Assembly: GCA_037976565.1 (NCBI GenBank)
Contig: CP137674.1
Span: 33,421,216-33,485,215, forward strand
Direction of reading: 5' to 3'
DNA length: 64,000 nt
Source of the DNA: Mesocentrotus franciscanus
Lineage: Eukaryota > Echinodermata > Echinoidea > Camarodonta > Strongylocentrotidae
The position numbers and the translations under genes are program-made. Positions 9,626-55,150 of this stretch are shown piece after piece (positions within the stretch are counted from its first letter, which is position 1; each line of letters opens with the position of its first letter). The notes beneath the pieces were generated by a model, which was not told where the DNA came from, made no database searches, and saw nothing but the letters and a program-made list of their open reading frames with translations.

Positions 9626-9639
9626 TTTTTTTTCATTTC

Positions 9640-20092: not shown

Positions 20093-20116
20093 AGTTTAAT
20101 AGAGAGGAAAGGTGGG

Positions 20117-20616: not shown

Positions 20617-20756
20617 AGTTTAATAGAGAGGGGAAAGGTGGGGGGGGGGTCGAGGAACAAAGGGGAAGCGTTATCCCGTGTTTTTATTGCAGTTTTGTTA
20701 CTCAATGGAGTAGTTTTGCTAATTTGTTTAAGTTTAGGTATAACAACGATCTTCTT

Positions 20757-21745: not shown

Positions 21746-21776
21746 TACACGATGTTCTTTTATTAAAAATATTAAT

Positions 21777-24965: not shown

Positions 24966-25197
24966 CCTTAATTTTCTATAGCTCTGCCCTTTGCCCTTTG
25001 GCCTTGGAACTCAAAATACGAATTTGCATATTATGACGTCAGCATATTTATGGAAAATTGATTGTATCTCTGTAAATATGGATCGATTTTCTTCCAAATT
25101 TTGATATGTTGTAGCTAAGACAATTTTCTACAAGATCAGTTATTCAGATTACATAACAGACCACCTAATTCGTCCTCATGACGAATTACATTTCTAG

Positions 25198-30102: not shown

Positions 30103-30140
30103 TTACAAATTGAGATTATAAGATTAATTTTAACAAGATG

Positions 30141-32023: not shown

Positions 32024-32710
32024 GTAAACATGTTTTACCTTTGATTTTTAACTTGATCTGTTTAGTTTGTCAAGTGAAAGGAAATTTTGAAATGAGTGAG
32101 GTCAAGGCCAAGTTGGAGGCAGATGCAAAGGGCCGGTTTGAGAAGTATCCATTCAGGGGTGGCGAAGCTATGCGTACATCACCATGTACATGTATACTAA
32201 CAAGTTGCTGTAGATTTTATTTAAAATGTATTTTAACTTCCAATATTTTTTTTAGAATTAACATTTGAAGGTCATGTAAAGGGGTCCAATACATGAAATG
32301 GAATGGCAAGCAAAAGAAAAATAATTGATCTTCCAATTTTGCTGAAAAAGTAAACATTGAAGACAACTGAAGTTATAAATAATGCTTTTTTATTTGTATT
32401 TTCTTACATATTCAGTTAATATTTATTGAATTGTGTATAATTCTGTTCCAGGGATTGAGAAAGAGGAGATCATAGGGTGCCTCAAGGTTCCAGTTTTGAT
32501 GTTCTGCCCCTTACCTCGAAGCGATGGCACCTTGTGTCTGACAATATAGGAGCAATGCACAATGGACTGGTAATTCATAATGAATATTACAATATTTTTC
32601 AATAAAGTCTGGGAAAGAATTTAGAAACAGAGATAACCTCATAACATGTGAGTCTGTCATGGCATTAAGGTTAAGACGACATTTGCTCCTGCAGCGACTG
32701 CTCCAGGCTT

Positions 32711-33219
32711 TACCGTAAATCTCCGTGTATAAGGCGCACTTTTTGCCGCCGAAAAAATTTGAAAGTCGGGGGTGCGTCTTATACACGGGTACAATTTTTT
32801 TTTTTTTTTTTTTTTTTAAAGTTTCGATTTGTGCCCCTCCACCTGGCGCTATGCCTGGCAATGTCTCCCAGCTCCACTACGAGTAATCGCTGTGTTGACT
32901 CACCACTCGGAAACTAGAACACTCAAATTTGTCTGTCATCTTGGTTTGAAAGTAATCTTTCTAATAGATGTCAATATGTAGTTTATAATAATTCTTCCAA
33001 TTTTTCTTCTATTACACATGGCATACCACAAGGTCCTATCCTAGGTCCTCTACTGTTTTTTTTATTTACATTAATGATCTTACATTCTTCTAAAAAACGA
33101 CATTGTTCCTATTATTTGTGACAAGTTCACAAGCACAAATCGGCGCCTTCAACTGCACCTCGCAGTTAAATGAAAGACCTTCCCGCGTGGGTTTTTAACA
33201 CAGACCTGGGGGTGAAAAC

Positions 33220-33261
<42 letters not shown>

Positions 33262-33302
33262 CTTAAAAAAGGGGTGCGCCTTATACACGGAGATTTACGG
33301 TA
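32711..33302. mobile_element. TA-flanked MITE containing a LINE fragment (copy 1)
   Basis: The terminal inverted repeats CCGTAAATCTCCGTGTATAA...GGCGCAC and the reverse complement ending at 33300 are flanked by TA (32711-32712, 33301-33302). Poly-T tracts lie inside both ends. The interior is foreign DNA including a reverse-transcriptase fragment. The TA target suggests Tc1/mariner-like mobilisation; no transposase. Confidence 0.75.
32942..33110 (+). pseudogene. LINE reverse-transcriptase fragment, frameshifted (copy 1)
   Basis: The plus strand encodes WFESNLSNRCQYV, then GIPQGPILGPLLF, then the YINDL motif, which is the RT palm segment of non-LTR retrotransposons just before the catalytic YxDD. 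Here a run of 8 T shifts the frame between LLF and YINDL; the second copy has 9 T and stays open. YxDD is absent, so it is a short relic. Clade uncertain (CR1/Jockey/RTE type are candidates). Confidence 0.8.
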
Positions 33303-34915
33303 TATAGTCAAAAGTGTAGGGTTGGGCTGAGGGTTGTAATTGAGATTGAGGTGGTTTAGAGTAAGGGTTAGGTCTATTTTGGGTCCAGGGATGAAGTTCA
33401 GTATTTGGTTTAATAGTGTAGGAAATTGACGTGGAGCAATTGTCTCGGGAGCAAGTGTCGTACAACCGGATTTTCCAGCAATCCAGGTGCTGGTGGAGCT
33501 GATTGTATCTTGCTCATCATTAGCAGTATGAAAATCTTCCTCTGTATTGTTATAGCAGCAACATGATGAAGAGTGGAAGGAAAATAGTATTCAACACTCC
33601 TTTCTATCATTTACAATAGCTTTAGTAAAGTAATAAATACACTGACCTGCAGTTTACAAAAATGTAGCACTATATTAACAATTAAAAGAAGTAACCGCTT
33701 TACGACATGCTCTATTGGCAATTGTTTACTGGTTATGTTGTAACACAAAATGAATTCTTAACCTTAATCCTGGATCCATTGCTAAACATAATGTCAACCC
33801 TTAATGTATTAAACATTGCCAGTCTGCCAGACCCAAAGTCAGGTTACCCTATTGTTCAAAGTTGATATTTTATTGCACCTTTACTGAAAGTTCAAAAATT
33901 TCAAAAACCGTACCCCGATGTTCACTTTATAATTATTGTACACTGCTTTCATGAACTTGCCATAAGTGTGAAATCATTGTATGTCTCTATATACAAACAG
34001 GTGCCTGTACATGCAATGCATTTCATGCAAAGGAAGAGTAGCATGAGAAGCTCATGAGGATATAGAAGACAGGACAAGGACCTTGCTGTCTAAAGCTCAG
34101 AGGCCAGATGACAGTGTCTGAAGTAAGTTCCCCATAGAAGAGCATGAACTTTCAAATGCAATTGTCAACCAACACACCATTGCCACCTGCAACCCATCCC
34201 ACTTTCACAATATATTCTCTAAACAGCAGTAACCTAAGTTCAACATTTGGATTAGTGATTAAGAAAGGCTACAGAAAATTGGTAAATCTCCTTTTTCATA
34301 CTCTTATAGTAGATTATTTTTTTGGGGAGGGCAGTCAGCTTAGCAGTTTAGGGTCTAATTATCTCATATGGCTATGTCCTGGCTGTCTTGGAGGTATTTG
34401 CCCCAGAAGTGTGATAAAGAAAAATATGTCTGTGTACTAAAAGTAAAACAAAACAAATCATTAGACACATTTTGTTGTTAACAGCTCAAAATTTAAAACT
34501 CGTATCAGAATGAGGTTTTTACACCGTAAAGTTGAAGGACGTAAAATTTATTTGGAGTAAATTCTATCATTTCTATGACATTTCTATGAATGCATCTTTT
34601 AAGACAATGGTCTGAATGTTTAATTGGATCTTTGACACAGACATGTAGTATATTAGTCATAAAAGGCATATTTGGCAATATAGTAATTTCATTTCAGACC
34701 ATAAAGAGAAGTACATGTATTATTACAAGCATGAAAAAAGAAATGTACTCCTGTCAAGCTAACAGTATGTTTAATTGTTTATATAAAATTAATAGCCCTT
34801 TAAAGATTACTAGTAGAAGAATAAGAAGAAGAAATACACTGATAATGTTAGCTTTACATCTTAAAGTGCTTGTACAATATTTGAAAATGGTTAATTTTGT
34901 TCAATTAACATTTTA
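33303..34915. other. Anonymous sequence (copy 1)
   Basis: The minus-strand frame described at 44979-45296 is present here but broken by two single-base length differences. Otherwise no feature was recognised; poly-T and short open frames only. Confidence 0.4.
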
Positions 34916-34919
34916 TTCA

Positions 34920-35130
34920 GGAACAGCCGGTGTCGTGGCGAAATGTGTCTTAGCGAAATCACATCTGTACAGACGCATCTCGCCTGGCGAGCTGCGTCTT
35001 ACAGACACATCTTGCCGCATTCCCCCGGCGAGATGTGTCTCCTAGATCGGCGAGATGAGTCTGCGATTGGCGAAAAGTGTCCACTGGCCGATCGGCGAGA
35101 TGAGTCTGCTAGCGATTGGCGAAAAGTGTC
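34920..35130 (+). repeat. GGCGARATGTGTC iteron cluster (copy 1)
   Basis: After AACAGCCGGTGTC come about eight direct or inverted variants of GGCGARATGTGTC (GGCGAAATGTGTC, CAGACGCATCTCGCC, GGCGAGATGTGTC, GGCGAGATGAGTC, GGCGAAAAGTGTC). The spacing is irregular, about 15-30 bp. A related cluster in the opposite orientation, ending GACACCGG, is at 59335-59490. Confidence 0.85.
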
Positions 35131-35649
35131 TACTGCAGTACCGGCCGATTTGTTTTACTTTCGTGTCCCATCTAAAGGAACTAGATGTTTGTTTTCTTTT
35201 ACATGATGATGATATTGTCTAAAAATATATTTAATAACGTTCCTAAAATCCGTGAAATGCAAGTGCATTTATTGCATCATAATTTAACCATTTAAAAAAT
35301 AAATATGCACGCTGCTGAGGCAGATATCATTACTTACTATTCCTAGAAACTTTGAAGTTAAACAAAAATGTAACAGGTGATGTGGGAAAACTTTTTTAAA
35401 TTGTATTATATTATCTTGTATTTATTAAATATTTTCTGCCTATATGACAGTGAGAATATGATATAATACATAACTCAACTGTTATTGTATATATTAAAAT
35501 TTTGAATGTCTAAACTGCAGAGCATTTGACGAGGCGTAATCATGTGATGTGCGAAAAGAATGACTGCTGATTTGTGAAATGTTTCCTTTATAATATTTTG
35601 TAAAATGATTATTCTATACAAAGATATCAAAAAGTTATATGACATTGAG

Positions 35650-35715
35650 GGGGAAGAGGGGGAAAGGAGAGAGAGAGAGAGAGAGAGGGGAGAGGGTGAG
35701 AGAGAAAGAGAGGAT
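35650..35715. repeat. GA microsatellite (copy 1)
   Basis: (GA)n with GGGG interruptions; the second copy is shorter (about 47350-47411), as expected for slippage or homopolymer error. Confidence 0.9.
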
Positions 35716-35789
35716 GCAATGTTGATATTTGAAACACCTTTGATGACTGTAAGATTTAGAACAAAAATTAGAAACAAAAACACAAAAAT

Positions 35790-36790
35790 GCCCCCATGTT
35801 TTCGAGTGCCCCTTTTACTTCAGATACGGTGCCCTGTTTAGAAACAAATATGTTTCCGATCCTCCGGGGCACGCCCCAACACTTTTTCAAGTACCCCAAA
35901 GTTCCCTTTACAGAGGAAAATGTCCCTTTACTTCCTCTTCAAATAAATAGCCCTTTTAGTTTGACATATGACCTTTTCCTTGTTCATATAATTGCCTTTT
36001 GTCCTTCTGATAAGTGACACTTTTCCCCTTCTTACAAATGCCCCTTTTCAACTGTGTAAATGCCCCTATTCAAATCTGACATGTGCCCGTTTTCCTTTTA
36101 ATAAGTGCTCCTTTTAATCTCTGATTAGTGCTCCTTTTACTATTCACAAGTGATCCCTTTTCCTTTCTTACAAGTGCCTTTGTTCCTTTTTATTAAGAGC
36201 CCTTTCCACGTCTCATAAATACCCCTTTTAACCTCTGATAGAATAATGCCCTTATTAAAATCTGATAGATGCATGCCTCTTTTCCTTTGTAATAAGTGCC
36301 CCTTTTTCCTTTCTACGTAACATGTGCTCCTAATTTAAAGCGACTAATAGCATTTTTTCTCGAGTGTTCACCCTCAAACTCATTGCCATGTTCTCGCATA
36401 TTTTCAGTTGCTGTAAATTATGTAACTACATCATGTATTTACAAATCTTTTCAGTCTTTCATGATGAGATTGTGGTTAAAACCCCATCAGGATTGGATTT
36501 GTCCTCTTTAATTGTGTCCTCATAAATCTTACAATTTTGCTCGCTCTCATTGCTCACTCGAAAATGGAATTTCAGACCATCACACCCAGCCGCAAAATCA
36601 TAATAAACAGTGAAATCATCCCTGATATTGAAATGTATCAATCACAATAATTATAAGGGTACATGTGTATACCAATGTTTGAAAATTGTATATTTTGCTT
36701 TGAGGTTATCTTTTAAGTGCCTCTTTCTTCAAGAAAGTGCCCTTTATGGTGCCCCAACTTTTAAAGACGCTCCGCCACCCTTGTACCACA
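35790..36790 (+). repeat. TGCCCCTTTT degenerate minisatellite and flank (copy 1)
   Basis: Roughly 15-20 irregular repeats of AAGTGCCCCTTTTCCTTT at 25-40 bp, then a unique-looking flank (36350-36660) that matches 10540-10740 in inverted orientation. Confidence 0.85.
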
Positions 36791-37069
36791 TTATGTTTTT
36801 ATTTGAATATCGTGGGCTTTTCCGATACAATGTTGCTATATCATGTTTATTACTTAGCATTTCCTGGTCCACTGTGATGCGAGTCTTTCTGTGCTACGGG
36901 TCATTACGACTTAAAAAAAATCCTGAAGCTTAATAAATAGCACTACTTGCTACCTACAGGACATGAATATCGAATTATAAAGATCATAATATGTTTGCAA
37001 AAATTTAATGAAATATGATACCTAACACATTATATATTTTAATGAATTGTACTGCTCCAACTCAGACCC

Positions 37070-37720
37070 CAGGCGTGGATCCAGGGGCCGAGTGGGCCTC
37101 CCCCGCCAAATAGAGAGAGAGAAGAAGGGAAAGGAAGGAGAGAAAGGGAAAGTTAGAAGAGAAGAAGAAAAAGGGGAAAAGAAGGAGATGGGGCGAGGGC
37201 CTTACCTCCTAGGCTGTTACCCCCCAAAAAACAAGAGAGAAGGAAGGAAAGGAAATAAAAAAAGGAAAAGAGAGATAAAGGGGAAGGAGAAAAAAGAGGA
37301 AGAATTAGAAAAGAAAAGAAGGGGATATCAGTTGCAATCTTCCCGCAAACAAGTTGTGGATCGGGGGCAAGGCCCTGCCTCTCCCCCCTCCCCCCCGCCA
37401 AAAGAGAGAAGGAAGGGAAAGAGGAGAGCTAAAAGGGAACAAAGAGAAGAAGAAAAGAAAAGTGATTAGAAAGAAGGGAGATCAGTTGCGATGAATCCCG
37501 CCAACAACGTGTGGATCGATCAAGGGGCAACAGGCTTCCTCCCCAGCAAACCCTAAAGAGAGAGAAGTAAGGAAATGGAATGGGAAAGAGGAGAAAGTGA
37601 AGAAAAAAAAGAGAAAGAAGAAAGGTAGGAGAGATCAATTGCGTTTTTCCCGCCATGCAAGGTGAGGCTCGAGGGGGCACTGCATATGGCGCACTTATGG
37701 AGGAGCTTGGCGGGGGGCAA
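37070..37720. repeat. Purine-rich tandem repeat with GTGGATC/CCCGCC modules (copy 1)
   Basis: Modules of GTGGATCNNGGGGCAAGGCC, CCCCCGCCAAA, a long GA tract and GATCAGTTGCAATCTTCCCG begin at about 37075, 37356 and 37511, with a partial one near 37665; the period is about 155 bp where regular. The first module starts CAGGCGTGGATCCAGGGG, similar to the hAT-like terminus at 57176. Open frames (such as 37047-37469) are K/E/R-rich artefacts. Confidence 0.75.
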
Positions 37721-38014
37721 TATAATTCAAACATGGTTTATTTCTAGTTCGATACCGGTGATTTACAAATGTTGCTGAAATGATCGACATAGTTTTCCGA
37801 GATTTTTCCTCACTTTTAGTAAATTATAATTGTTTATGCGTTTGTTGAAAATGACAAATTCCTATATTTACAGTCAGGCAAGAAATGTGCTTATTTAGAG
37901 GCCTAAATGTCAAGGCCCAGGGAACGGCGGGGCTCGGGGGCTCGAGCCCCCCACCTTTTTGAAAAAGTATATTAACGAGAAATAGAAAGAAAGAGAAAAA
38001 GAAAGAAAGAAAAG

Positions 38015-38510
38015 TGACCTGCCAGTGTCACAAAATACATAAAAATATGCTCATCTAACCTTGATTAAAGCCTCAAACCCTGAGCTTCCGGTAGCTCTGC
38101 CCCTGGATTCCACCTAGGGCCTAAGGCGGCCCCTGAATGCTTATCTGACCGTTATAAAATGCCTAAAACCCTGAGCTTCTGGGGCTCTGCCCCTGGACCC
38201 AACGCCAATTAGTGTCCTGCCAGTGTCAAAAATAAGGTATCAAAATATGCTCATCTGACCTTAATTAAACGCTTAAAACCCTGAGCTTCCGGGGCTTTGC
38301 CCACGACCCAACCAATGGCACTAAGGTGGGCCCCTGCATGGATGCTCATCTGACCTCATTTATTCCCTAAAACCCTTAGCTTCGGGGCTCCGCCCTGGAC
38401 CACGCCAATTAGTGTCCTGCCAGTGTCACAAATAAGGTATCAAAATATGCTCATCTGACTGAATTAAATGCCCATACCCTGAGCTTCCGGGGCTCATTGA
38501 CCCCGTAATA
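38015..38510. repeat. Irregular 90-110 bp tandem repeat (copy 1)
   Basis: Five units centred on AAACCCTGAGCTTCCGGGGC, TCTGCCCCTGGACCC and AATATGCTCATCTGACC. Some units carry CCAATTAGTGTCCTGCCAGT and others GCGGCCCCTGAATG linkers. Partial deletion in this copy near 38496 relative to 50240. Confidence 0.8.
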
Positions 38511-39490
38511 CGCTACGCTCTACCTGATCATATATACTCATATATAGCCTCCCCCACCCACTATGAAAAGCATTCAGAGGGCCTGCATGTAAGTGGGGTG
38601 ATGCAGATTTTGTCTGCCCCCCACACCATACCCTTTTCCAGCACACAAACACATTAGGCACTCTCTGGAAGGGCCCACCATGCATTGCTATAAAAGTAGT
38701 CCACCATAGGGATGTTGCGAAGTGGTCATATGATGCACTTATATAGGACTACTTTTTATATCTCGACATGCGAGTTCCTCCAAAATATGGGAGTTTGCCC
38801 CCTGGGTAATATATGGAGGAATGTGAATGAATGTATTATACATGTACGTGTTTATTCAGCTCTCGTATCCTTCGGTCAACTTTCATTCACACATGTTATC
38901 CTAACTCATTCATTTGTAATTCATTAATGACATCTACTATAAATCAGTGCATTCAATCTACTTCCTGTATTCCCTTCCTTTTTCTCATCCTTTCACAATC
39001 ACATATTCATTATGGGCCTTCCATTCTGCCTTTCACAATCATACGTTTCACCCAACAATTTTTCACAACCCACCTACACTCTTCCTTTGGTCTATATTCT
39101 TCACCACACATTCTGGACTACATGTACCTTTAACTACCAAGACATATTTATGTGAAATAATGATGGCAAATTATACCGTATCAATCATGTATTCATCCCT
39201 AATTACATTTAATAGAAAAGTACAACAATTACTTAATGGTATTGATATTTAATTTAGAAAACGAGATTGAATTTTGTAATAAAAATGGCTTTGTATGCAA
39301 AAAATGTGCAATATAAAACTGGAAGTGATAGATTGAAACACAAATTATAATATAATATGTACATCTTTGACTGCGTAATTCCTTGCACATGTGCAGTGGT
39401 AAATTAAGTTTTCATAGAAAATGGTGCATTTATATAATGACTAATGATTGGTAAAGAGAAGTCACAAGGAAATTACCTACATTGTAGTTA

Positions 39491-39598
39491 TATTGGAGCC
39501 TTGTTATATGAGGGCCCAAAACCAGAATACAAAGAAGTGGGACCATCAAAATTACATTTGGATAATTATAGTGTTTATTATAACGAGGTTCCACTGTA
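39491..39598. mobile_element. Short pogo/Tigger-like MITE remnant (copy 1)
   Basis: TATTGGAGCCTTGTTATA and the inverted TATAACGAGGTTCCACTGTA form imperfect termini of a roughly 110-bp palindrome flanked by TA. The complement ACAGTGGAACCTCGTTATAA is of the pogo/Tigger terminal type. It explains a minus-strand frame containing VEPRYNKHY, which is not a gene. Confidence 0.45.
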
Positions 39599-39650
39599 TT
39601 TAGATCAACGGTACATGCCCACATTTTAAATGACGGGGCAGCCCGAGCAC

Positions 39651-39900
39651 AGGTGCAAACTGCTATCGTCTGACGATTGATGCCTCCTCCTTCTACAGCC
39701 GTCAAAGCCTGGGCCTAGTTACCAATGAAAACGAGCTGGATTGGAAGTCCATTTGAATGCTGCATGAAAAAAAAAAGGTGCAAACTGCTATCGTCTGACG
39801 ATTGATGCCTCCTCCTTCTACAGCCGTCAAAGCCTGGGCCTAGTTACCAATGAAAAAGAGCTGGATTGGAAGTCCATTTGAATGCTGCATGAAAAGAAAA
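39651..39900. repeat. Two-copy 125-bp tandem repeat (copy 1)
   Basis: AGGTGCAAACTGCTATCGTC recurs at 39651 and 39776, each followed by the same 125 bp ending in an A-rich stretch. An acceptor-like CTCCTCCTTCTACAG sits in each unit, but no exon can be supported. Confidence 0.9.
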
Positions 39901-40106
39901 AAGAAAATTCAAATTCATCAGAAATCATGCACGGAACAAGAACATGTCTGGCACATTTTGATACAATTGACATCTTTTGATGCAATTTGGAACATTACAT
40001 GTATAAGGACATATTCAACAAGTAACATTCCAATTTCCTTTTTTGCTACCAGAACTAGAGAAGCTCAAAGCTCCCACTTATGAAGAAATACATCTAAACC
40101 TGTATA

Positions 40107-40350
40107 TGTGGATATGTCATCGGACTGCGGATCACAAGGTCCGCTGTTCGAGTTCCGCTGCATCACCAATGTTCTTTAGTAAGACATTAATCTACATTTG
40201 CCACACTCGACCTGGGTGAGGTAAATGGCTGGAATTAATTCCTTGAAATGCTAGAGCGCCGTAATGGTGGCACAGCTAAAGCCGGTTAATAATTTCTAAA
40301 TTTGGAAGCGCATAGAGATGTTTAAAATGTGATATGCGCTACACATTTCT
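40107..40350 (+). mobile_element. tRNA-Arg-derived SINE (copy 1)
   Basis: A head GTGGATATGTCATCGGACTG then CGGATCACAAGGTCC resembles arginine tRNA, with B box GTTCGAGTTCC. The body TTCTTTAGTAAGACATTAAT, GCCACACTCGACC, GAGCGCCGTAATGGTGG and TTTGGAAGCGCATAGAG matches my recollection of a SINE common in marine invertebrates. It ends near GATATGCGCTACACATTTCTG without a clear poly-A or ATT tail. Confidence 0.75.
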
Positions 40351-40809
40351 GCTTGTACATGAATATATGCAAGTATTGCACTTTTTGATGACATGCGCAT
40401 ACTAATTGTAATTGTTACACCTTACAGGTATATCGGATTTCGACGAAAATGGTATCAGAATGTGCATAAGACTTGCAGCGAAATCTCTGAAAATGTGAGG
40501 TTAACCATACTTGACTGGAACCATCCGTTAATAGAAAGTACATGTAATATTTAAATATGTTTTTTTGAGAATTACCAAATCAATTTTTATTAAAGGCCGT
40601 GTAGCTTGGCAAATACTGGTTAATGCCATCTACGTCTTCTTTTGGACAACTGCACGTAAACGAATGGACTGGATTAACGGTAGTCAGCGACTTAATCTCG
40701 ATTAGCCCGAGTCAGGCCATGGGAAAGACACTTAGTCTCGTCAGTCTACACTCCCTTTAAGGTTGACAGTTGGGTTTATTTGACAAATAAATGTTAGATT
40801 AGGTTAGAT

Positions 40810-41150
40810 TTGCCTAGTTCTGTCTGTATACACATGGATTCCCTGTAATCTGGACTCCAGTGGTCTCAACAACGGATGATTTTAAAAGAGATTGTTAGAG
40901 AAGGAAACTTTCATAACCATGTACCTCTCCAAAACAGCCCATTATTTTGTTGTTCTGCCTTTGTCTCCTCAAGTTGTCATCTTGCTTCATCAGCGTTCAT
41001 CTCCTATGGTGAAGCATCATCCTAAAATTAAAATAATGCAAAAGCATTATACACAAATTATAATTGCCCTCATGTTGATCAGTCTTCTGAACAAGGATAC
41101 ATATGTTCAGCTGGGGCAGTGTTCGTAGTAGGTCCATGGGTAGATGATCA
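40810..41150. repeat. Direct repeat, first unit (copy 1)
   Basis: About 330 bp from TCTGTCTGTATACACATGGA through CCATGTACCTCTCC, CTGCCTTTGTCTCCTCAAGT and TATACACAAATTATAATTG recur with small differences at about 42038-42400, 1.23 kb downstream. Neither unit shows coding potential. Confidence 0.85.
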
Positions 41151-42037
41151 AGATTTTACTTTACCTAAAATGAAAACAACTTCTTTTTTTGGGAGGTCGG
41201 GGTTGGTTAGGGCAATTAAACCATTATAACCACATGTAGCTATTTCAGTGTGAGTTGAAAAATTGAATCAAGAGTTTCGCGGACATTATGCTTACATGAG
41301 AGGTAGTATGTCAATCCACATCCAGTACCATCCCCTTCCTCTCTCTAGAAAAATACATTTGTGAAAGTTATATGTAGTTTTTTTAAGGAAGACATTGAAA
41401 TTTTATAACCGTAGTCCCTGGGGCAATTTTGGGAGAGGCTGCCCACATGTCAGAGAGACTCATTCTCACAAGTTAGATCCCTTTCACCCAAGGATAATTC
41501 CTATCAAGTTTGCTTAAATTCCAGCAATCCTTTTATAAGTAAGAGTATATCAAAATATGACCCTGGGGCACCTGGGGCTGCCCCATGCCAGATGGTTACC
41601 TCATATCAACAACTTTAGATACTTCCTTTCCCAAGGACGATTCCTGTCAAGTTGAGCATTTTGCTGAGGTGAGCTAATAAATAATTTCTTAGATTTTCAT
41701 CTACATGTATTTATTAAATGAACCAAACTGTCAAACTTAATAGTACCGAAGGGCTATAAATGCCATATTTCATCGTCGTCTTGGTTACTGGTTCCAATCA
41801 ACAGAGCCTGCGCATGAGGTTCACCGCAAAATCATTCAAGCAACGGGATGGACCTGGGCAAATTCAGTGTGTGGCGCTGGTGTTATCACCACGCCATTGT
41901 TTAGCACAAAATTGTTTGGAACCAGCACCCTTGACAACTTGCCAATACATCACACTTCGGTACTCTATAACCTTCATTTGTTTTTGATGATATTTCTACT
42001 ATGATTCAAATCAACTTGTTATCATGGTTAGATTTCC

Positions 42038-42400
42038 CATTTCTGTCTGTATACACATGGAGTCCCTGTAATCTGGACTCCAATGGTCTCAACAAACAGA
42101 AAAAGGAAAATTTGAAAAGAGATTGTTGTCAGGGTAGAAGGAAACTTTCATAACCATGTACCTCTCCAAAACGGCCCATTATTTTGTTGTTCTGCCTTTG
42201 TCTCCTCAAGTTGTCATCTTGCTCCATCGGCGTTCATCTCCTATGGGAAAGCATCATCCTAAAAAAATGAAGAAAAAAAAAAATGAAAAATTAAATATGT
42301 AAAAGCAGTATACACAAATTATAATTGCACTAATGTTCATCATTAAGTCTTCTCAACAAGAATACATGTTCACGTGGGGGCAGTGTTTGATGATCAAGAT
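42038..42400. repeat. Direct repeat, second unit (copy 1)
   Basis: Partner of 40810-41150, with extra GAAAAAGGAAAATTTG and A-rich indels. Confidence 0.85.
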
Positions 42401-42675
42401 TTTACCTCTTCTGTCCCCCCTCCCTCCTCATACAAATTTGTGACAGGTCATTTACAGAACTTGTTTCTGACAAATTTGTAAATCTACTGACTTTGGAAAC
42501 ATTGTTTCCAAACTCTTCCTTTACAATATAAAATTTTTCAAATGATACCACTTTACTGTGGCCACATTAGTCCATCCTAGAAATGAATCACTTCCATACA
42601 TTCTATTTACAAATGTTTAAAACATTTTGAAAAACAATCCAAAATTATCACATTTACTCCACAATTGTACTCATA

Positions 42676-42851
42676 TACAGTCAAACCTGCTTTAGTGACC
42701 ACCTGTCTACAAAGACCACCTGTCTACAAGGACCACATTTTTGTTTCCCTTGAAAATGGTTTCTCATTGAAACATGTACTAAAGGAACCTGTCTACAAAG
42801 ACCACTTTTTGTGTTTCCCTTAGGCGGTCGCTATAGACAGGTTTGACTGTA
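42676..42851. mobile_element. pogo/Tigger-like MITE (copy 1)
   Basis: TA-CAGTCAAACCTG at 42676 and CAGGTTTGACTG-TA at 42851 are perfect inverted ends with TA target duplication. Internal TGTCTACAAAGACCAC phrases recur. CAGT... termini and TA targets are typical of pogo/Tigger (Tc1/mariner superfamily) MITEs. Confidence 0.85.
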
Positions 42852-43367
42852 TCTCTTTTATATATCTTTTCATGTTAATTACCTACATATATTAAGGAAA
42901 ATCAATTTCAAGATCACTGAATATTACACCATCATGTTTATAAATAGACGTACATGTAGGCCTATACCTGTCAATTTTTATGTGAAATCTTTAGGTGTCC
43001 ATACCATCTTGCATCTTCAACATTTGTGGCAATGTCTATAATAAGTTCCATGAGTTGGGTTCTTCTGTTAAAGTTAATCTGAGGAAAAGATATCGAAACG
43101 AAAGATCTTTCTCATAATTTTCCTTACATCTAAAGGCCTATCCGCATTTTGACATGTTTTCGCATTCGATAGAAAAATTGGTCAATTTTAATAATTGTCT
43201 TATTATTGTTATCTTTCACAGTTCACAGACAACTAATTTAACGAAAAGACAGCGCTCTTGTTTAAACTGCCCCACAAAATATACCTTTATGCTGTGCTCA
43301 GTTTATCTCATCAATTGAGCTTGTAAAGCTACATTAGCCATCACAGTTCTACATATTCGCAAATGAA

Positions 43368-43867: not shown

Positions 43868-44403
43868 TACATCACCATGTACATGTATACTAACAAGTTG
43901 CTGTAGATTTTATTTAAAATGTATTTTAACTTCCAATATTTTTTTAGAATTAACATTTGAAGGTCATGTAAAGGGGGTCCAATACATGAAATGGAATGGC
44001 AAGCAAAAAGAAAATAATTGATCTTCCAATTTTGCTGAAAAAGTAAACATTGAAGACAACTGAAGTTATAAATAATGCTTTTTTATTTGTATTTTCTTAC
44101 ATATTCAGTTAATATTTATTGAATTGTGTATAATTCTGTTCCAGGGATTGAGAAAGAGGAGATCATAGGGTGCCTCAAGGTTCCAGTTTTGATGTTCTGC
44201 CCCTTACCTCGAAGCGATGGCACCTTGTGTCTGACAATATAGGAGCAATGCACAATGGACTGGTAATTCATAATGAATATTACAATATTTTTCAATAAAG
44301 TCTGGGAAAGAATTTAGAAACAGAGATAACCTCATAACATGTGAGTCTGTCATGGCATTAAGGTTAAGACGACATTTGCTCCTGCAGCGACTGCTCCAGG
44401 CTT

Positions 44404-44910
44404 TACCGTAAATCTCCGTGTATAAGGCGCACTTTTTGCCGCCGAAAAAATTTGAAAGTCGGGGGTGCGTCTTATACACGGGTACAATTTTTTTTTTTTT
44501 TTTTTTAAAGTTTCGATTTGTGCCCTCCACCTGGCGCTATGCCTGGCAATGTCTCCCAGCTCCACTACGAGTAATCGCTGTGTTGACTCACCACTCGGAA
44601 ACTAGAACACTCAAATTTGTCTGTCATCTTGGTTTGAAAGTAATCTTTCTAATAGATGTCAATATGTAGTTTATAATAATTCTTCCAATTTTTCTTCTAT
44701 TACACATGGCATACCACAAGGTCCTATCCTAGGTCCTCTACTGTTTTTTTTTATTTACATTAATGATCTTACACATTCTTCTAAGAAACGACATTGTTCC
44801 TATTATTTGTGACAAGTTCACAAGCACAAATCGGCGCCTTCAACTGCACCTCGCAGTTAAATGAAAGACCTTCCCCGCGTGGGTTTTTAACACAGACCTG
44901 GGGGTGAAAA

Positions 44911-44948
<38 letters not shown>

Positions 44949-44986
44949 CTTAAAAGGGTGCGCCTTATACACGGAGATTTACGGTA
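44404..44986. mobile_element. TA-flanked MITE containing a LINE fragment (copy 2)
   Basis: Same element as 32711-33302, shorter because both poly-T tracts are shorter. Confidence 0.75.
44630..44800 (+). pseudogene. LINE reverse-transcriptase fragment, open frame (copy 2)
   Basis: WFESNLSNRCQYV, GIPQGPILGPLLF and YINDL are in a single frame here. The frame then ends (RHCSYYL stop) before any YxDD box. Short relic of a non-LTR retrotransposon. Confidence 0.8.
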
Positions 44987-45296
44987 TATAGTCAAAAGTG
45001 TAGGGTTGGGCTGAGGGTTGTAATTGAGATTGAGGTGGTTTAGAGTAAGGGTTAGGTCTAGTTTTGGGTCCAGGGATGAAGTTCAGTATTTGGTTTAATA
45101 GTGTAGGAAATTGACGTGGAGCAATTGTCTCGGGAGCAAGTGTCGTACAACCGGATTTTCCAGCAATCCAGGTGCTGGTGGAGCTGATTGTATCTTGCTC
45201 ATCATTAGCAGTATGAAAATCTTCCTCTGTATTGTTATAGCAGCAACATGATGAAGAGTGGAAGGAAAAATAGTATTCAACACTCCTTTCTATCAT
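44979..45296 (-). CDS. Uncharacterised 105-codon open frame, doubtful
   Basis: A minus-strand frame from ATG at 45296 encodes a Ser/Cys-rich start (FHSSSCCCYNN), an acidic middle (NDEQDTISSTSTWIAGKSG) and a proline-rich tail (PGPKTRPNPYSKPPQSQLQ), ending where the MITE terminus supplies TAA. The composition is protein-like, and the first copy (33296-33613) breaks the frame through one-base length differences. No domain recognised; it could be a decayed transposon ORF or an exon. An in-frame stop directly precedes the ATG. Confidence 0.25.
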   Translation of the reverse strand: MIERSVEYYFSFHSSSCCCYNNTEEDFHTANDEQDTISSTSTWIAGKSGCTTLAPETIAPRQFPTLLNQILNFIPGPKTRPNPYSKPPQSQLQPSAQPYTFDYIP

Positions 45297-46614
45297 TTAC
45301 AATAGCTTTAGTAAAGTAATAAATACACTGACCTGCAGTTTACAAAAATGTAGCACTATATTAACAATTAAAAGAAGTAACCGCTTTTTACGACATGCTC
45401 TATTGGCAATTGTTTACTGGTTATGTTGTAACACAAAATGAATTCTTAACCTTAATCCTGGATCCATTGCTAAACATAATGTCAACCCTTAATGTATTAA
45501 ACATTGCCAGTCTGCCAGACCCAAAGTCAGGTTACCCTATTGTTCAAAGTTGATATTTTATTGCACCTTTACTGAAAGTTCAAAAATTTCTGCAAAACCG
45601 TACCCCGATGTTCACTTTATAATTATTGTACACTGCTTTCATGAACTTGCCATAAGTGTGAAATCATTGTATGTCTCTATATACAAACAGGTGCCTGTAC
45701 ATGCAATGCATTTCATGCAAAGGAAGAGTAGCATGAGAAGCTCATGAGGATATAGAAGACAGGACAAGGACCTTGCTGTCTAAAGCTCAGAGGCCAGATG
45801 ACAGTGTCTGAAGTAAGTTGCCCCATAGAAGAGCATGAACTTTCAAATGCAATTGTCAACCAACACACCATTGCCACCTGCAACCCATCCCACTTTCACA
45901 ATATATTCTCTAAACAGCAGTAACCTAAGTTCAACATTTGGATTAGTGATTAAGAAAGGCTACAGAAAATTGGTAAATCTCCTTTTTCATACTCTTATAG
46001 TAGATTATTTTTGGGGAGGGCAGTCAGCTTAGCAGTTTAGGGTCTAATTATCTCATATGGCTATGTCCTGGCTGTCTTGGAGGTATTTGCCCCAGAAGTG
46101 TGATAAAGAAAATATGTCTGTGTACTAAAAGTAAAACAAAAACAAATCATTAGACACATTTTGGTTGTTAACAGCTCAAAATTTAAAACTCGTATCAGAA
46201 TGAGGTTTTTACACCGTAAAGTTGAAGGACGTAAAATTTATTTGGAGTAAATTCTATCATTTCTATGACATTTCTATGAATGCATCTTTTAAGACAATGG
46301 TCTGAATGTTTAATTGGATCTTTGACACAGACATGTAGTATATTAGTCATAAAAGGCATATTTGGCAATATAGTAATTTCATTTCAGACCATAAAGAGAA
46401 GTACATGTATTATTACAAGCATGAAAAATAAGAAATGTACTCCTGTCAAGCTAACAGTATGTTTAATTGTTTATATAAAATTAATAGCCCTTTAAAGATT
46501 ACTAGAAGTAGAAGAATAAGAAGAAGAAATACACTGATAATGTTAGCTTTACATCTTAAAGTGCTTGTACAATATTTGAAAATGGTTAATTTTTGTTCAA
46601 TTAACATTTTATTC

Positions 46615-46830
46615 AGGAACAGCCGGTGTCGTGGCGAAATGTGTCTTAGCGAAATCACATCTGTACAGACGCATCTCGCCTGGCGAGCTGCGTCTTACAG
46701 ACACATCTTGCCGCATTCCCCCGGCGAGATGTGTCTCCTAGATCGGCGAGATGAGTCTGCGATTGGCGAAAAGTGTCCACTGGCCGATCGGCGAGATGAG
46801 TCTGCTAGCGATTGGCGAAAAGTGTCTACT
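46615..46830 (+). repeat. GGCGARATGTGTC iteron cluster (copy 2)
   Basis: Same as 34920-35130. In the collapsed locus it faces the inverted cluster at 59335-59490 across about 12.5 kb. Confidence 0.85.
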
Positions 46831-47344
46831 GCAGTACCGGCCGATTTGTTTTACTTTCGTGTCCCATCTAAAGGAACTAGATGTTTGTTTTTTCTTTTAC
46901 ATGATGATGATATTGTCTAAAAATATATTTAATAACGTTCCTAAAATCCGTGAAATGCAAGTGCATTTATTGCATCATAATTTAACCATTTAAAAAATAA
47001 ATATGCACGCTGCTGAGGCAGATATCATTACTTACTATTCCTAGAAACTTTGAAGTTAAACAAAAATGTAACAGGTGATGTGGGGAAAACTTTTTTAAAT
47101 TGTATTATATTATCTTGTATTTATTAAATATTTTCTGCCTATATGACAGTGAGAATATGATATAATACATAACTCAACTGTTATTGTATATATTAAAATT
47201 TTGAATGTCTAAACTGCAGAGCATTTGACGAGGCGTAATCATGTGATGTGCGAAAAGAATGACTGCTGATTTGTGAAATGTTTCCTTTATAATATTTTGT
47301 AAAATGATTATTCTATACAAAGATATCAAAAAGTTATATGACAT

Positions 47345-48500
47345 TGAGGGGGAAGAGGGGGAAAGGAGAGAGAGAGAGAGAGAGGGGAGAGGGTGAGAGA
47401 GAAAGAGAGGATGCAATGTTGATATTTGAAACACCTTTGATGACTGTACTTAAAAGGCAAGATTTAGAACAAAAAATAGAAACAAAAACACAAAAATGCC
47501 CCCATGTTTTCGAGTGCCCCTTTTACTTCAGATACGGTGCCCCTGTTTAGAAACAAATATGTTTCCGATCCTCCGGGGCACGCCCCAACACTTTTCAAGT
47601 ACCCCAAAGTTCCCTTTACAGAGGAAAAATGTCCCCTTTACTTCCTCTTCAAATAAATAGCCCTTTTAGTTTGACATATGACCTTTTCCTTGTTCATATA
47701 ATTGCCTTTTGTCCTTCTGATAAGTGACACTTTTCCCCTTCTTACAAATGCCCCTTTTCAACTGTGTAAATGCCCCTATTCAAATCTGACATGTGCCCGT
47801 TTTCCTTTTAATAAGTGCTCCTTTTAATCTCTGATTAGTGCTCCTTTTACTATTCACAAGTGATCCCTTTTCCTTTCTTACAAGTGCCTTTGTTCCTTTT
47901 ATTAAGAGCCCTTTCCACGTCTCATAAATACCCCTTTTAACCTCTGATAGAATAATGCCCTTATTAAAATCTGATAGATGCATGCCTCTTTTCCTTTGTA
48001 ATAAGTGCCCCTTTTTCCTTTCTACGTAACATGTGCTCCTAATTTAAAGCGACTAATAGCATTTTTTCTCGAGTGTTCACCCTCAAACTCATTGCCATGT
48101 TCTCGCATATTTTCAGTTGCTGTAAATTATGTAACTACATCATGTATTTACAAATCTTTTCAGTCTTTCATGATGAGATTGTGGTTAAAACCCCATCAGG
48201 ATTGGATTTGTCCTCTTTAATTGTGTCCTCATAAATCTTACAATTTTTGCTCGCTCTCATTGCTCACTCGAAAATGGAATTTCAGACCATCACACCCAGC
48301 CGCAAAATCATAATAAACAGTGAAATCATCCCTGATATTGAAATGTATCAATCACAATAATTATAAGGGTACATGTGTATACCAATGTTTGAAAATTGTA
48401 TATTTTTGCTTTGAGGTTATCTTTTAAGTGCCTCTTTCTTCAAGAAAGTGCCCTTTATGGTGCCCCAACTTTTAAAGACGCTCCGCCACCCTTGTACCAC
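47345..48500 (+). repeat. GA tract and TGCCCCTTTT minisatellite (copy 2)
   Basis: Counterpart of 35650-36790, with an extra CTTAAAAGGC near 47449. Confidence 0.85.
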
Positions 48501-48781
48501 ATTATGTTTTTATTTGAATATCGTGGGCTTTTCCGATACAATGTTGCTATATCATGTTTATTACTTAGCATTTCCTGGTCCACTGTGATGCGAGTCTTTC
48601 TGTGCTACGGGTCATTACGACTTAAAAAAATTAATCCTGAAGCTTAATAAATAGCACTACTTGCTACCTACAGGACATGAATATCGAATTATAAAGATCA
48701 TAATATGTTTGCAAAAATTTAATGAAATATGATACCTAACACATTATATATTTTAATGAATTGTACTGCTCCAACTCAGAC

Positions 48782-49460
48782 CCCCAGGCGTGGATCCAGG
48801 GGCCGAGGGGCCTTCCCCGCCAAATAGAGAGAGAGAGAAAAGGAAAAGAAGGGAAAGGGAAGGAGAGAAAGGGAAAGTTAGAAGAGGAAGAAGAAAAAGG
48901 GGAAAAGAAGGAGATGGGGCGAAAGGGCCTTACCTCCTAGGCTGTTACCCCCCATAAAAAACAAGAGAGAAGGAAGGAAAGGGAAATAAAAAAAAAGGAA
49001 AAGAGGAGATAAAGGGAAGGAGAAAAAAAGAGGAAGAATTAGAAAAGAAAAGAAGGGGGATATCAGTTGCAATCTTCCCGCCAACAAGTTGTGGATCGGG
49101 GGCAAAGGCCCTGCCTCTCCTCCCCCGCCAAAAAAAAAGAGAAGGAAGGGAAAGAGGAGAGCTAAAAGGGAACAAAAAAGAGGAAGAAGAAAAGAAAGGT
49201 GATTAGAAAGAAGGGGAGATCAGTTGCGATGAATCCCGCCAACAACGTGTGGATCGATCAAGGGGCAACAGGCTTCCCCCAGCAAACCCTAAAGAGAGAG
49301 AAGTAAGGAAATGGAATGGGAAAGAGGAGAGAAAGTGAAGAAAAAAAAGAGAAAGAAGAAAGGTAGGAGAGATCAATTGCGTTTTTCCCGCCATGCAAGG
49401 TGAGGCTCGAGGGGGGCACTGCATATGGCGCACTTATGGAGGGGGAGCTTGGCGGGGCAA
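48782..49460. repeat. Purine-rich tandem repeat (copy 2)
   Basis: Counterpart of 37070-37720, with variable GA-tract lengths. Confidence 0.75.
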
Positions 49461-49744
49461 TATAATTCAAACATGGTTTATTTCTAGTTCGATACCGGTG
49501 ATTTACAAATGTTGCTGAAATGATCGACATAGTTTTCCGAGATTTTTCCTCACTTTTTAGTAAATTATAATTGTTTATGCGTTTGTTGGAAAATGACAAA
49601 TTCCTATATTTACAGTCAGGCAAGAAATGTGCTTATTTAGAGGCCTAAATGTCAAGGCCAGGAACGGCGGGGCTCGGGGCCTCGAGCCCCCCACCTTTTT
49701 GAAAAAGTATATTAACGAGAAATAGAAAGAAAGAGAAAAAGAAA

Positions 49745-50265
49745 GAAAGAAAAGTGACCTGCCAGTGTCACAAAATACATAAAAATATGCTCATCTAACC
49801 TTGATTAAAGCCTCAAACCCCTGAGCTTCCGGTAGCTCTGCCCCCTGGATTCCACCTAGGCCCTAAGGCGGGCCCCTGAATGCTTATCTGACCGTTATAA
49901 AATGCCTAAAACCCTGAGCTTCTGGGGCTCTGCCCCCTGGACCCAACGCCAATTAGTGTCCTGCCAGTGTCAAAAATAAGGTATCAAAATATGCTCATCT
50001 GACCTTAATTAAACGCTTAAAACCCTGAGCTTCCGGGGCTTTGCCCACACGACCCAACCAATGGCACTAAGGTGGGCCCCTGCATGGATGCTCATCTGAC
50101 CTCATTTATTCCCTAAAACCCTAGCTTGGGGCTCCGCCCCTGGACCCCACGCCAATTAGTGTCCTGCCAGTGTCACAAATAAGGTATCAAAATATGCTCA
50201 TCTGACTGAATTAAATGCCCATACCCCTGAGCTTCCGGGGCTCCACCCCTGACCCCGCCAATTTA
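49745..50265. repeat. Irregular 90-110 bp tandem repeat (copy 2)
   Basis: Counterpart of 38015-38510. Here the last unit is more complete (GGGGCTCCACCCCTGACCCC). Confidence 0.8.
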
Positions 50266-51249
50266 CGCTACGCTCTACCTGATCATATATACTCATATAT
50301 AGCCTCCCCCACCCACTATGAAAAGCATTCAGCGGGCCTGCATGTAAGAGTGGGGTGATGCAGATTTTGTCTGCCCCCCACCATACCCTTTTCCAGCACA
50401 CAAACACATTAGGCACTCTCTGGAAGGGCCCACCATGCATTTGCTATAAAAGTAGTCCACCATAGGGATGTTGCGAAGTGGTCATATGATGCACTTATAT
50501 AGGACTACTTTTTATATCTCGACATGCGAGTTCCTCCAAAATATGGGAGTTTGCCCCCTGGGTAATATATGGAGGAATGTGAATGAATGTATTATACATG
50601 TACGTGTTTATTCAGCTCTCGTATCCTTCGGTCAACTTTCATTCACACATGTTATCCTAACTCATTCATTTGTAATTCATTAATGACATCTACTATAAAT
50701 CAGTGCATTCAATCTACTTCCTGTATTCCCTTCCTTTTTCTCATCCTTTCACAATCACATATTCATTATGGGCCTTCCATTCTGCCTTTCACAATCATAC
50801 GTTTCACCCAACAATTTTTCACAACCCACCCTACACTCTTCCTTTGGTCTATATTCTTCACCACACATTCTGGACTACATGTACCTTTAACTACCAAGAC
50901 ATATTTATGTGAAATAATGATGGCAAATTATACCGTATCAATCATGTATTCATCCCTAATTACATTTAATAGAAAAGTACAACAATTACTTAATGGTATT
51001 GATATTTAATTTAGAAAACGAGATTGAATTTTTGTAATAAAAATGGCTTTGTATGCAAAAAAATGTGCAATATAAAACTGGAAGTGATAGATTGAAACAC
51101 AAATTATAATATAATATGTACATCTTTGACTGCGTAATTCCTTGCACATGTGCAGTGGTAAATTAAGTTTTCATAGAAAATGGTGCATTTATATAATGAC
51201 TAATGATTGGTAAAGAGAAGTCACAAGGAAATTACCTACATTGTAGTTA

Positions 51250-51357
51250 TATTGGAGCCTTGTTATATGAGGGCCCAAAACCAGAATACAAAGAAGTGGG
51301 ACCATCAAAATTACATTTGGATAATTATAGTGTTTATTATAACGAGGTTCCACTGTA
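51250..51357. mobile_element. Short pogo/Tigger-like MITE remnant (copy 2)
   Basis: Counterpart of 39491-39598. Confidence 0.45.
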
Positions 51358-51410
51358 TTTAGATCAACGGTACATGCCCACATTTTAAATGACGGGGCAG
51401 CCCGAGCACA

Positions 51411-51655
51411 GGTGCAAACTGCTATCGTCTGACGATTGATGCCTCCTCCTTCTACAGCCGTCAAAGCCTGGGCCTAGTTACCAATGAAAAGAGCTGGATT
51501 GGAAGTCCATTTGAATGCTGCATGAAAAAAAAAGGTGCAAACTGCTATCGTCTGACGATTGATGCCTCCTCCTTCTACAGCCGTCAAAGCCTGGGCCTAG
51601 TTACCAATGAAAAGAGCTGGATTGGAAGTCCATTTGAATGCTGCATGAAAAGAAA
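51411..51655. repeat. Two-copy tandem repeat of about 122-125 bp (copy 2)
   Basis: Counterpart of 39651-39900. Confidence 0.9.
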
Positions 51656-51862
51656 AAGAAAATTCAAATTCATCAGAAATCATGCACGGAACAAGAACAT
51701 GTCTGGCACATTTTGATACAATTGACATCTTTTGATGCAATTTGGAACATTACATGTATAAGGACATATTCAACAAGTAACATTCCAATTTCCTTTTTTG
51801 CTACCAGAACTAGAGAAGCTCAAAGCTCCCACTTATGAAGAAATACATCTAAACCTGTATAT

Positions 51863-52110
51863 GTGGATATGTCATCGGACTGCGGATCACAAGGTCCGCT
51901 GTTCGAGTTCCGCTGCATCACCAATGTTCTTTAGTAAGACATTAATCTACATTTGCCACACTCGACCTGGGTGAGGTAAATGGCTGGAATTAATTCCTTG
52001 AAATGCTAGAGCGCCGTAATGGTGGCACAGCTAAAGCCGGTTAATAATTTCTAAATTTGGAAGCGCATAGAGATGTTTAAAATGTGATATGCGCTACACA
52101 TTTCTGCTTG
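51863..52110 (+). mobile_element. tRNA-Arg-derived SINE (copy 2)
   Basis: Counterpart of 40107-40350, effectively identical. Confidence 0.75.
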
Positions 52111-52569
52111 TACATGAATATATGCAAGTATTGCACTTTTTGATGACATGCGCATACTAATTGTAATTGTTACACCTTACAGGTATATCGGATTTCGACG
52201 AAAATGGTATCAGAATGTGCATAAGACTTGCAGCGAAATCTCTGAAAATGTGAGGTTAACCATACTTGACTGGAACCATCCGTTAATAGAAAGTACATGT
52301 AATATTTAAATATGTTTTTTTGAGAATTACCAAATCCAATTTTTATTAAAGGCCGTGTAGCTTGGCAAATACTGGTTAATGCCATCTACGTCTTCTTTGG
52401 ACAACTGCACGTAAACGAATGGACTGGATTAACGGTAGTCAGCGACTTAATCTCGATTAGCCCCGAGTCAGGCCATGGGAAAGACACTTAGTCTCGTCAG
52501 TCTACACTCCCTTTAAGGTTGACAGTTGGGTTTATTTGACAAATAAATGTTAGATTAGGTTAGATTTGC

Positions 52570-54170
52570 CTAGTTCTGTCTGTATACACATGGATTCCCT
52601 GTAATCTGGACTCCAGTGGTCTCAACAACGGAAAAGGGATGATTTTAAAAGAGATTGTTAGAGAAGGAAACTTTCATAACCATGTACCTCTCCAAAACAG
52701 CCCATTATTTTGTTGTTCTGCCTTTGTCTCCTCAAGTTGTCATCTTGCTTCATCAGCGTTCATCTCCTATGGTGAAGCATCATCCTAAAATTTAAAATAA
52801 TGCAAAAGCATTATACACAAATTATAATTGCCCTCATGTTGATCAGTCTTCTGAACAAGGATACATATGTTCAGCTGGGGGCAGTGTTCGTAGTAGGTCC
52901 ATGGGTAGATGATCAAGATTTTACTTTACCTAAAATGAAAACAACTTCTTTTTTAGGGGAGGTCGGGGTTGGTTAGGGCAATTAAACCATTATAACCACA
53001 TGTAGCTATTTCAGTGTGAGTTGAAAATTGAATCAAGAGTTTCGCGGACATTATGCTTACATGAGAGGTAGTATGTCAATCCACATCCAGTACCATCCCC
53101 TTCCTCTCTCTAGAAAAATACATTTGTGAAAGTTATATGTAGTTTTTTTTAAGGAAGACATTGAAATTTTATAACCGTAGTCCCTGGGGCAATTTTGGGG
53201 AGAGGCTGCCCACATGTCAGAGAGACTCATTCTCACAAAGTTAGATCCCTTTCACCCAAGGATAATTCCTATCAAGTTTGCTTAAATTCCAGCAATCCTT
53301 TTATAGAAGTAAGAGTATATCAAAATATGACCCTGGGGCACCTGGGGCTGCCCCATGCCAGATGGTTACCTCATATCAACAACTTTAGATACTTCCTTTC
53401 CCAAGGACGATTCCTGTCAAGTTGAGCATTTTGCTGAGGTGAGCTAATAAATAATTTCTTAGATTTTCATCTACATGTATTTATTAAATGAACCAAACTG
53501 TCAAACTTAATAGTACCGAAGGGCTATAAATGCCATATTTCATCGTCGTCTTGGTTACTGGTTCCAATCAACAGAGCCTGCGCATGAGGTTCACCGCAAA
53601 ATCATTCAAGCAACGGGATGGACCTGGGCAAATTCAGTGTGTGGCGCTGGTGTTATCACCACGCCATTGTTTAGCACAAAATTGTTTGGAACCAGCACCC
53701 TTGACAACTTGGCCAATACATCACACTTCGGTACTCTATAACCTTCATTTGTTTTTTGATGATATTTCTACTATGATTCAAATCAACTTGTTATCATGGT
53801 TAGATTTCCCCATTTCTGTCTGTATACACATGGAGTCCCTGTAATCTGGACTCCAATGGTCTCAACAAACAGAAAAAGGAAAATTTGAAAAGAGATTGTT
53901 GTCAGGGTAGAAGGAAACTTTCATAACCATGTACCTCTCCAAAACGGCCCATTATTTTGTTGTTCTGCCTTTGTCTCCTCAAGTTGTCATCTTGCTCCAT
54001 CGGCGTTCATCTCCTATGGGAAAGCATCATCCTAAAAAAATGAAGAAAAAAAATGAAAAATTAAATATGTAAAAGCAGTATACACAAATTATAATTGCAC
54101 TAATGTTCATCATTAAGTCTTCTCAACAAGAATACATGTTCACGTGGGGGCAGTGTTTGATGATCAAGAT
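52570..54170. repeat. Direct repeat pair (copy 2)
   Basis: Units at about 52570-52915 and 53816-54170 correspond to 40810-41150 and 42038-42400. Confidence 0.85.
53514..53741 (+). CDS. Uncharacterised 75-codon open segment, doubtful
   Basis: Between in-frame stops lies YRRAINAIFHRRLGYWF, then HEVHRKIIQATGWTWANS, then GVITTPLFSTKLFGTSTLD. There is no initiator at the start, no clear splice sites and no recognised domain. The first copy (about 41744-41970) loses one G and shifts frame after TSTLDN. It may be a fragment of an exon or a transposon. Confidence 0.2.
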   Translation, partial: YRRAINAIFHRRLGYWFQSTEPAHEVHRKIIQATGWTWANSVCGAGVITTPLFSTKLFGTSTLDNLANTSHFGTL

Positions 54171-54453
54171 TTTACCTCTTCTGTCCCCCCTCCCTCCTCA
54201 TACAAATTTGTGACAGGTCATTTACAGAACTTGTTTCTGACAAATTTGTAAATCTACTGACTTTGGAAACATTGTTTCCAAACTCTTCCTGACACCCCCA
54301 CAATATAAAATTTTTTCAAATGATACCACTTTACTGTGGCCACATTAGTCCATCCTAGAAATGAATCACTTCCATACATTCTATTTACAAATGTTTAAAA
54401 CATTTTGAAAAACAATCCAAAATTATCACATTTACTCCACAATTGTACTCATA

Positions 54454-54628
54454 TACAGTCAAACCTGCTTTAGTGACCACCTGTCTACAAAGACCACCTG
54501 TCTACAAGGACCACATTTTTGTTTCCTTGAAAATGGTTTCTCATTGAAACATGTACTAAAGGAACCTGTCTACAAAGACCACTTTTTGTGTTTCCCTTAG
54601 GCGGTCGCTATAGACAGGTTTGACTGTA
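54454..54628. mobile_element. pogo/Tigger-like MITE (copy 2)
   Basis: Counterpart of 42676-42851; CAGTCAAACCTG ends with TA on both sides. Confidence 0.85.
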
Positions 54629-55150
54629 TCTCTTTTATATATCTTTTCATGGTTTACCTACATATATTAAGGAAAATCAATTTCAAGATCACTGAATATT
54701 ACACCATCATGTTTATAAATAGACGTACATGTAGGCCTATACCTGTCAATTTTTATGTGAAATCTTTAGGTGTCCATACCATCTTGCATCTTCAACATTT
54801 GTGGCAATGTCTATAATAAGTTCCATGAGTTGGGTTCTTCTGTTAAAGTTAATCTGAGGAAAAGATATCGAAACGAAAATAAAATCTTTCTCATAATTTT
54901 CCCTACATCTATAGGCCCTATCCGCATTTTGACATGTTTTCGCATTCGATAGAAAAATTGGTCATCTTTTAATAATTGTCTTATTATTGTTATCTTTCAC
55001 AGTTCACAGACAACTAATTTAACGAAAAGACAGCGCTCTTGTTTAAAAACTGCCCCACAAAATATACCTTTATGCTGTGCTCAGTTTATCTCATCAATTG
55101 AGCTTGTAAAGCTACATTAGCCCATCACAGTTCTACATATTCGCAAATGA

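What the first reader, a model, noticed from the sequence alone, without database searches (positions are those of the whole stretch)
32175..55150. 11 kb colinear duplication abutting a 500-N gap: probable unmerged contig overlap
Copy 1 runs to the left edge of the gap and copy 2 begins at its right edge. All repeats, SINEs and MITEs recur in order, with differences mostly in homopolymers. The duplicate ends coincide with the gap edges, as expected if two overlapping contigs were scaffolded with a placeholder. The true locus would then be about 11.7 kb shorter, and dosage or synteny inferred from this scaffold would be wrong.
Basis: partly seen in the sequence, partly recalled or inferred. Interest (0 to 1): 0.85.

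Follow-up and report, generated by a model that had tools for sequence, protein, structure and literature searches.

The report
Unmerged contig overlap posing as duplication
An 11-kilobase stretch appears twice around a placeholder gap, most likely because two overlapping pieces of a genome assembly were laid end to end without being merged; it looks like an ordinary assembly error and not a real duplication.

Summary
Window 32175-43367 and 43868-55150 are one colinear sequence (98.07% identity). The match starts on the first base after the 500-N gap and reaches to within one base of its left edge: the suffix of one contig equals the prefix of the next. The copies differ mainly by short indels: 115 against 18 substitutions, 6 of them isolated; other alignments give 98-115 indels and 18-56 substitutions. 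The 441-bp satellite of the same window shows 39 substitutions and 7 indels. Copy 1 lacks bases more often (81 vs 34). In 36 of 133 differences that paralogues can judge, 22 favour copy 2, 6 copy 1, 8 tie. The pattern fits the published 'false homotype duplication' at contig boundaries (PMC8081667 passages). Two haplotypes joined end to end remain a serious alternative, also an artefact; a very recent true tandem duplication is less likely. Biological interest is low.

The parts
32175..43367 (+). copy 1: right end (suffix) of the contig 20617-43367; lacks bases more often than copy 2
43368..43867 (.). 500-N placeholder gap between the copies
43868..55150 (+). copy 2: left end (prefix) of the next contig, the same sequence as copy 1
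20093..20116 (+). last 24 bp before the other gap, repeated just after it
20117..20616 (.). second 500-N placeholder gap
20617..20642 (+). first 26 bp after that gap, matching 20093-20116, which lacks 2 of the bases

Best explanation
One genomic locus of about 11.2 kb was assembled twice, as the right end of contig 20617-43367 and as the left end of the contig starting at 43868. A scaffolder put the two contigs side by side and inserted a fixed 500-N spacer instead of merging the overlap. Shown: the dovetail, the kind of differences, the unequal quality of the copies, the second dovetail. Inferred: noisy long reads as the source of the indels, failure of the assembler to accept the overlap because of them or of a graph branch, correct contig order, and a Hi-C-type scaffolder as the source of the 500 Ns. 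This is a false homotype duplication of the 'overlapping sequences at contig boundaries' type.
For: Suffix-prefix match with an overhang of 0 or 1 base. 18 substitutions to 115 indels, 98 of the indels being 1-2 bp; only 6 substitutions lie more than 10 columns from another difference. Indels outnumber substitutions in every alignment made: blastn 105 gap openings to 32, MAFFT 98 to 56, five global scorings 103-115 to 18-39; the 441-bp satellite has 39 substitutions and 7 indels in all five. 81 of 115 indels are bases missing from copy 1 (binomial p = 1.4e-5). Of 36 differences (of 133) that could be judged against paralogous repeats, 22 favour copy 2, 6 copy 1, 8 tie. The other 500-N gap has a 26-bp dovetail; its 15-bp core occurs in the window only at 20093 and 20617, and 5 of 20,000 random end-start pairs scored as high, all five by their coordinates inside repeat families of the window. 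Published descriptions match: tandem copies with a gap between, size often that of a corrected read, differing consensus quality (PMC8081667 passages); gaps between duplicated pairs (PMC9516828 passages). Two assemblies scaffolded with 3D-DNA report 500-N spacers (PMC10320752, PMC12879420 passages).
Against: No reads, so depth is unknown. In the assemblies surveyed in PMC9516828 heterotype duplications mostly far outweigh homotype ones (passages), a prior against the homotype label; after setting this down I lowered this confidence from 0.80 to 0.75 and raised the haplotype rival from 0.14 to 0.19. Bases missing from copy 1 and from copy 2 have the same positional distribution (Mann-Whitney p = 0.94), against a simple picture of consensus worsening towards each contig's own tip; they cluster at about 37.2-39.2 kb, in GA-rich and tandem-repeat sequence. 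Four larger blocks (11, 10, 9 and 7 bp, all missing from copy 1) could be allelic. The 26-bp overlap at the other gap is far shorter and need not have the same cause. Diverged repeat pairs are weak controls under the gap-friendly scoring: 2.2-kb tandem pair 127 substitutions to 150 indels, inverted pair 28 to 26, 200-bp units 18 to 22 and 19 to 22, the 320-360-bp elements 17 to 14 and 20 to 12.
Confidence: 0.75

Rival explanations
1. Heterotype false duplication: the left contig carries one haplotype of the 11 kb and the right contig the other (the 'flanking contigs' case of PMC8081667). Still an assembly artefact; the scaffold is equally too long.
For: The same geometry is described for this type (PMC8081667 passage). 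Heterotype is reported as the main source of false duplications (PMC9516828 passages). Four block differences of 7-11 bp could be allelic.
Against: 6 clean substitutions in about 11.1 kb (0.05%) against 115 indels, 73 of them in homopolymers. Allelic divergence is normally dominated by substitutions (general knowledge; satellite control 39 to 7).
Confidence: 0.19
2. Real, very recent (or gene-converted) tandem duplication, with the assembly broken at the junction and the copies carrying sequencing errors.
For: Sequence alone cannot exclude two biologically identical copies; the 500 Ns could hide the junction.
Against: Both contigs would have to stop within about 1 bp of the biological breakpoint. 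The other gap also has matching edges. No other self-match in the window crosses either end of the duplicate (blastn, E up to 1) and no microhomology is obvious by eye there, though this is weak evidence.
Confidence: 0.06

Closest known systems
[quoted passage not shown]
   Same: dovetailing contig ends, tandem copies separated by a gap, unequal consensus quality, a length plausible for one long read
   Different: read depth and k-mer copy number not available; the read length of this assembly is unknown
False heterotype duplication, 'flanking contigs' (VGP, PMC8081667; PMC9516828)
   Same: same geometry, gap between the copies
   Different: clean substitutions are few relative to indels for an ordinary allelic pair
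True tandem segmental duplication
   Same: direct orientation, colinear, long, highly identical
   Different: duplicate ends coincide with the contig ends; differences look like sequencing errors more than divergence

Membership tests
False homotype duplication at contig boundary | suffix of one contig equals prefix of the next, gap between | tested here: met
   overhang 0 or 1 base
False homotype duplication at contig boundary | differing consensus quality between the copies | tested here: met
   81 vs 34 missing-base events; of 36 polarised differences 22 favour copy 2, 6 copy 1, 8 tie; judged by sequence only, not by reads
False homotype duplication at contig boundary | no haplotype-specific k-mers; more assembly copies than read k-mers support | not testable with these tools
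   no reads; 6 isolated substitutions found
False homotype duplication at contig boundary | size similar to a corrected read | tested here: inconclusive
   11.2 kb is plausible for long reads, but the read length of this assembly is unknown
False heterotype duplication | allelic variants distinguish the copies at half coverage | tested here: inconclusive
   6 clean and 18 total substitutions vs 115 indels; coverage not testable
True tandem duplication | continuous sequence across the copy 1-copy 2 junction | not testable with these tools
   the junction is 500 Ns
True tandem duplication | differences between copies follow natural mutation, substitutions exceeding indels | tested here: not met
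   duplicate 18 to 115, satellite control 39 to 7 (Fisher p = 1.6e-18); direction the same under five scorings, blastn and MAFFT. A very young duplication overlaid with sequencing errors would also fail this test.

The most novel reading that the evidence does not exclude
A real, very young 11-kb tandem duplication whose junction defeated assembly, with the indels being sequencing error laid over two identical copies.
Probability: 0.06. Interest if true: 0.2.

Novelty: not a real feature. Interest (0 to 1): 0.06.

Why it matters
It matters only for users of this assembly. If the reading is right, the scaffold carries about 11.7 kb of false sequence, short reads will map ambiguously there and may escape polishing (inference), and copy-number or synteny claims at this locus would be wrong. 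Since both 500-N gaps in the window have matching edges, the whole assembly deserves a scan for contig-end overlaps. No protein domain reached its curated cut-off in the copies, but only 22 of the 64 reading frames listed for 43868-55400 were scanned.

Tried and rejected
Identifying the organism failed. Two protein searches gave no homologue. One exon-like ORF had no match among solved structures (window 32050-32178) and, as 32020-32265, none in Pfam. ARAGORN, run with the bacterial code, found no tRNA, and no Rfam family reached its gathering score. Pfam scans of 30 ORFs (7 outside the copies, 22 in copy 2, and 32020-32265, which crosses the left end of copy 1) gave four matches, all below their curated cut-offs (DUF5061, Siva, MTA_R1, Pex24p), which I treat as chance.

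A gradient of errors towards the gap was predicted and not found. Homopolymer run-length profiles of copies and flanks were not decisive: the sequence right of 55151 resembles the copies more than 20617-32174 does, which may be base composition. A first null for the gap-1 overlap (3 of 3000 as high) did not exclude overlapping or paralogous draws, which excluded pairs lying within 400 bp, replaced it. In one search, 97 of 133 differences had no usable paralogue and were left out; many of the paralogues used lie inside the copies themselves and some are GA- or CT-rich low-complexity stretches, so the votes are not independent.

Full report
Observation. The window has two runs of exactly 500 N, at 20117-20616 and 43368-43867. 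Self-alignment gives one dominant match: 32175-43366 against 43868-55150, same strand, 98.067% identity over 11,331 columns, 32 mismatches and 105 gap openings. The first base after the gap pairs with 32175 (TACATCACCATG... in both). At the other end blastn stops at 43366; the last base before the gap, 43367, also fits if one base is missing (ATGAA against ATGAGAA).

Kind of difference. A global alignment gives 18 substitutions and 115 indels (one of them the edge base); 75 indels are 1 bp and 23 are 2 bp; 73 lie in homopolymers. Six substitutions lie more than 10 columns from another difference, about 0.05%; 2 of these 6 are transitions. The counts depend on the aligner: blastn 32 and 105, MAFFT 56 and 98, five global scorings 18-39 and 103-115. 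Indels lead in every case. As a control, the 441-bp satellite at 2355-4561, whose units are about as similar to each other as the two copies are, shows 39 substitutions and 7 indels (Fisher p = 1.6e-18 against the duplicate), unchanged in the five scorings. Other similar pairs agree but are small: 4 to 0 in a 222-bp repeat, 2 to 0 and 1 to 0 in the 126-bp units, 14 to 1 in a second satellite pairing. More diverged pairs are less clean under the gap-friendly scoring: the 2.2-kb tandem pair (23017-26394 and 25198-28515) has 127 to 150, changing to 356 to 43 under a gap-averse scoring; an inverted pair has 28 to 26, the 200-bp units 18 to 22 and 19 to 22, the 320-360-bp elements 17 to 14 and 20 to 12. 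The copies look like one sequence read twice with indel-type errors.

Which copy is worse. Of 115 indels, 81 are bases missing from copy 1 and 34 from copy 2. Of 133 differences, 36 could be judged against paralogous repeats in the window: 22 favour copy 2, 6 favour copy 1, 8 tie. The clearest are at 40874 (7 bp), 41113 and 42036, in a dispersed element of 320-360 bp, although there the two supporting sequences are the same paralogue seen in each copy. Against expectation, bases missing from copy 1 and from copy 2 are distributed alike along the segment (p = 0.94) and peak at about 37.2-39.2 kb, not towards the gap.

The other gap. The 24 bases before gap 20117-20616 recur as the first 26 bases after it, two bases being missing on the left. 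The 15-base core occurs in the window only at these two places. Of 20,000 random end-start pairs, 5 scored as high, and by their coordinates all five lie inside repeat families of the window. So both 500-N gaps in the window are flanked by contig ends that repeat each other, which a biological duplication at the 43-kb gap alone would not explain. The 26-bp case is short and may have another technical origin.

Known counterpart. [quoted passage not shown] differing consensus quality is named as a mark (PMC8081667, passages). [quoted passage not shown] Spacers of 500 N are reported for two assemblies made with 3D-DNA (PMC10320752 and PMC12879420, passages). That this assembly used such a tool is an inference from the gap size.

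Rivals. A join of two haplotypes has the same geometry ('flanking contigs') and, by the survey above, the higher prior, but should show more substitutions than indels. A true recent tandem duplication would need both contigs to stop within about 1 bp of the breakpoint. Neither is excluded without reads. An artefact of either type: 0.94; homotype 0.75, heterotype 0.19.

Limits. The organism was not identified, and the genome search tool did not answer in eight tries. That the window is eukaryotic is a judgement from its repeat content and lack of long ORFs, not a test.

Noticed in passing
4981-17886: Large inverted-repeat structure: arms about 4981-8614 and 14451-17886 match in inverse orientation, the main pieces at 90-93.5% identity, with the palindrome GGGAACCTGGTATACCAGGTTCCC at both outer ends (twice at the left); possibly a long terminal-inverted-repeat element.
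   Followed up: partly
2355-4811: Five units of a 441-bp satellite (97% alike) followed directly by an array of a palindromic 19-20 bp unit (CGATAAACAGTGTTTATCG).
   Followed up: no
23017-30103: Diverged tandem copies of a unit of about 2.2 kb, 72-85% alike in the longer matches.
   Followed up: no
60318-60773: A 456-bp stretch that matches its own reverse complement at 82%: a long imperfect palindrome.
   Followed up: no
62172-62767: Variable tandem arrays of ATGGTGAATGGTAGGCCA-like units, in both orientations.
   Followed up: no
20117-20642: The second 500-N gap also has matching edges (26-bp dovetail), and the contig right of it soon enters CT-rich tandem arrays at 20749-21764.
   Followed up: yes
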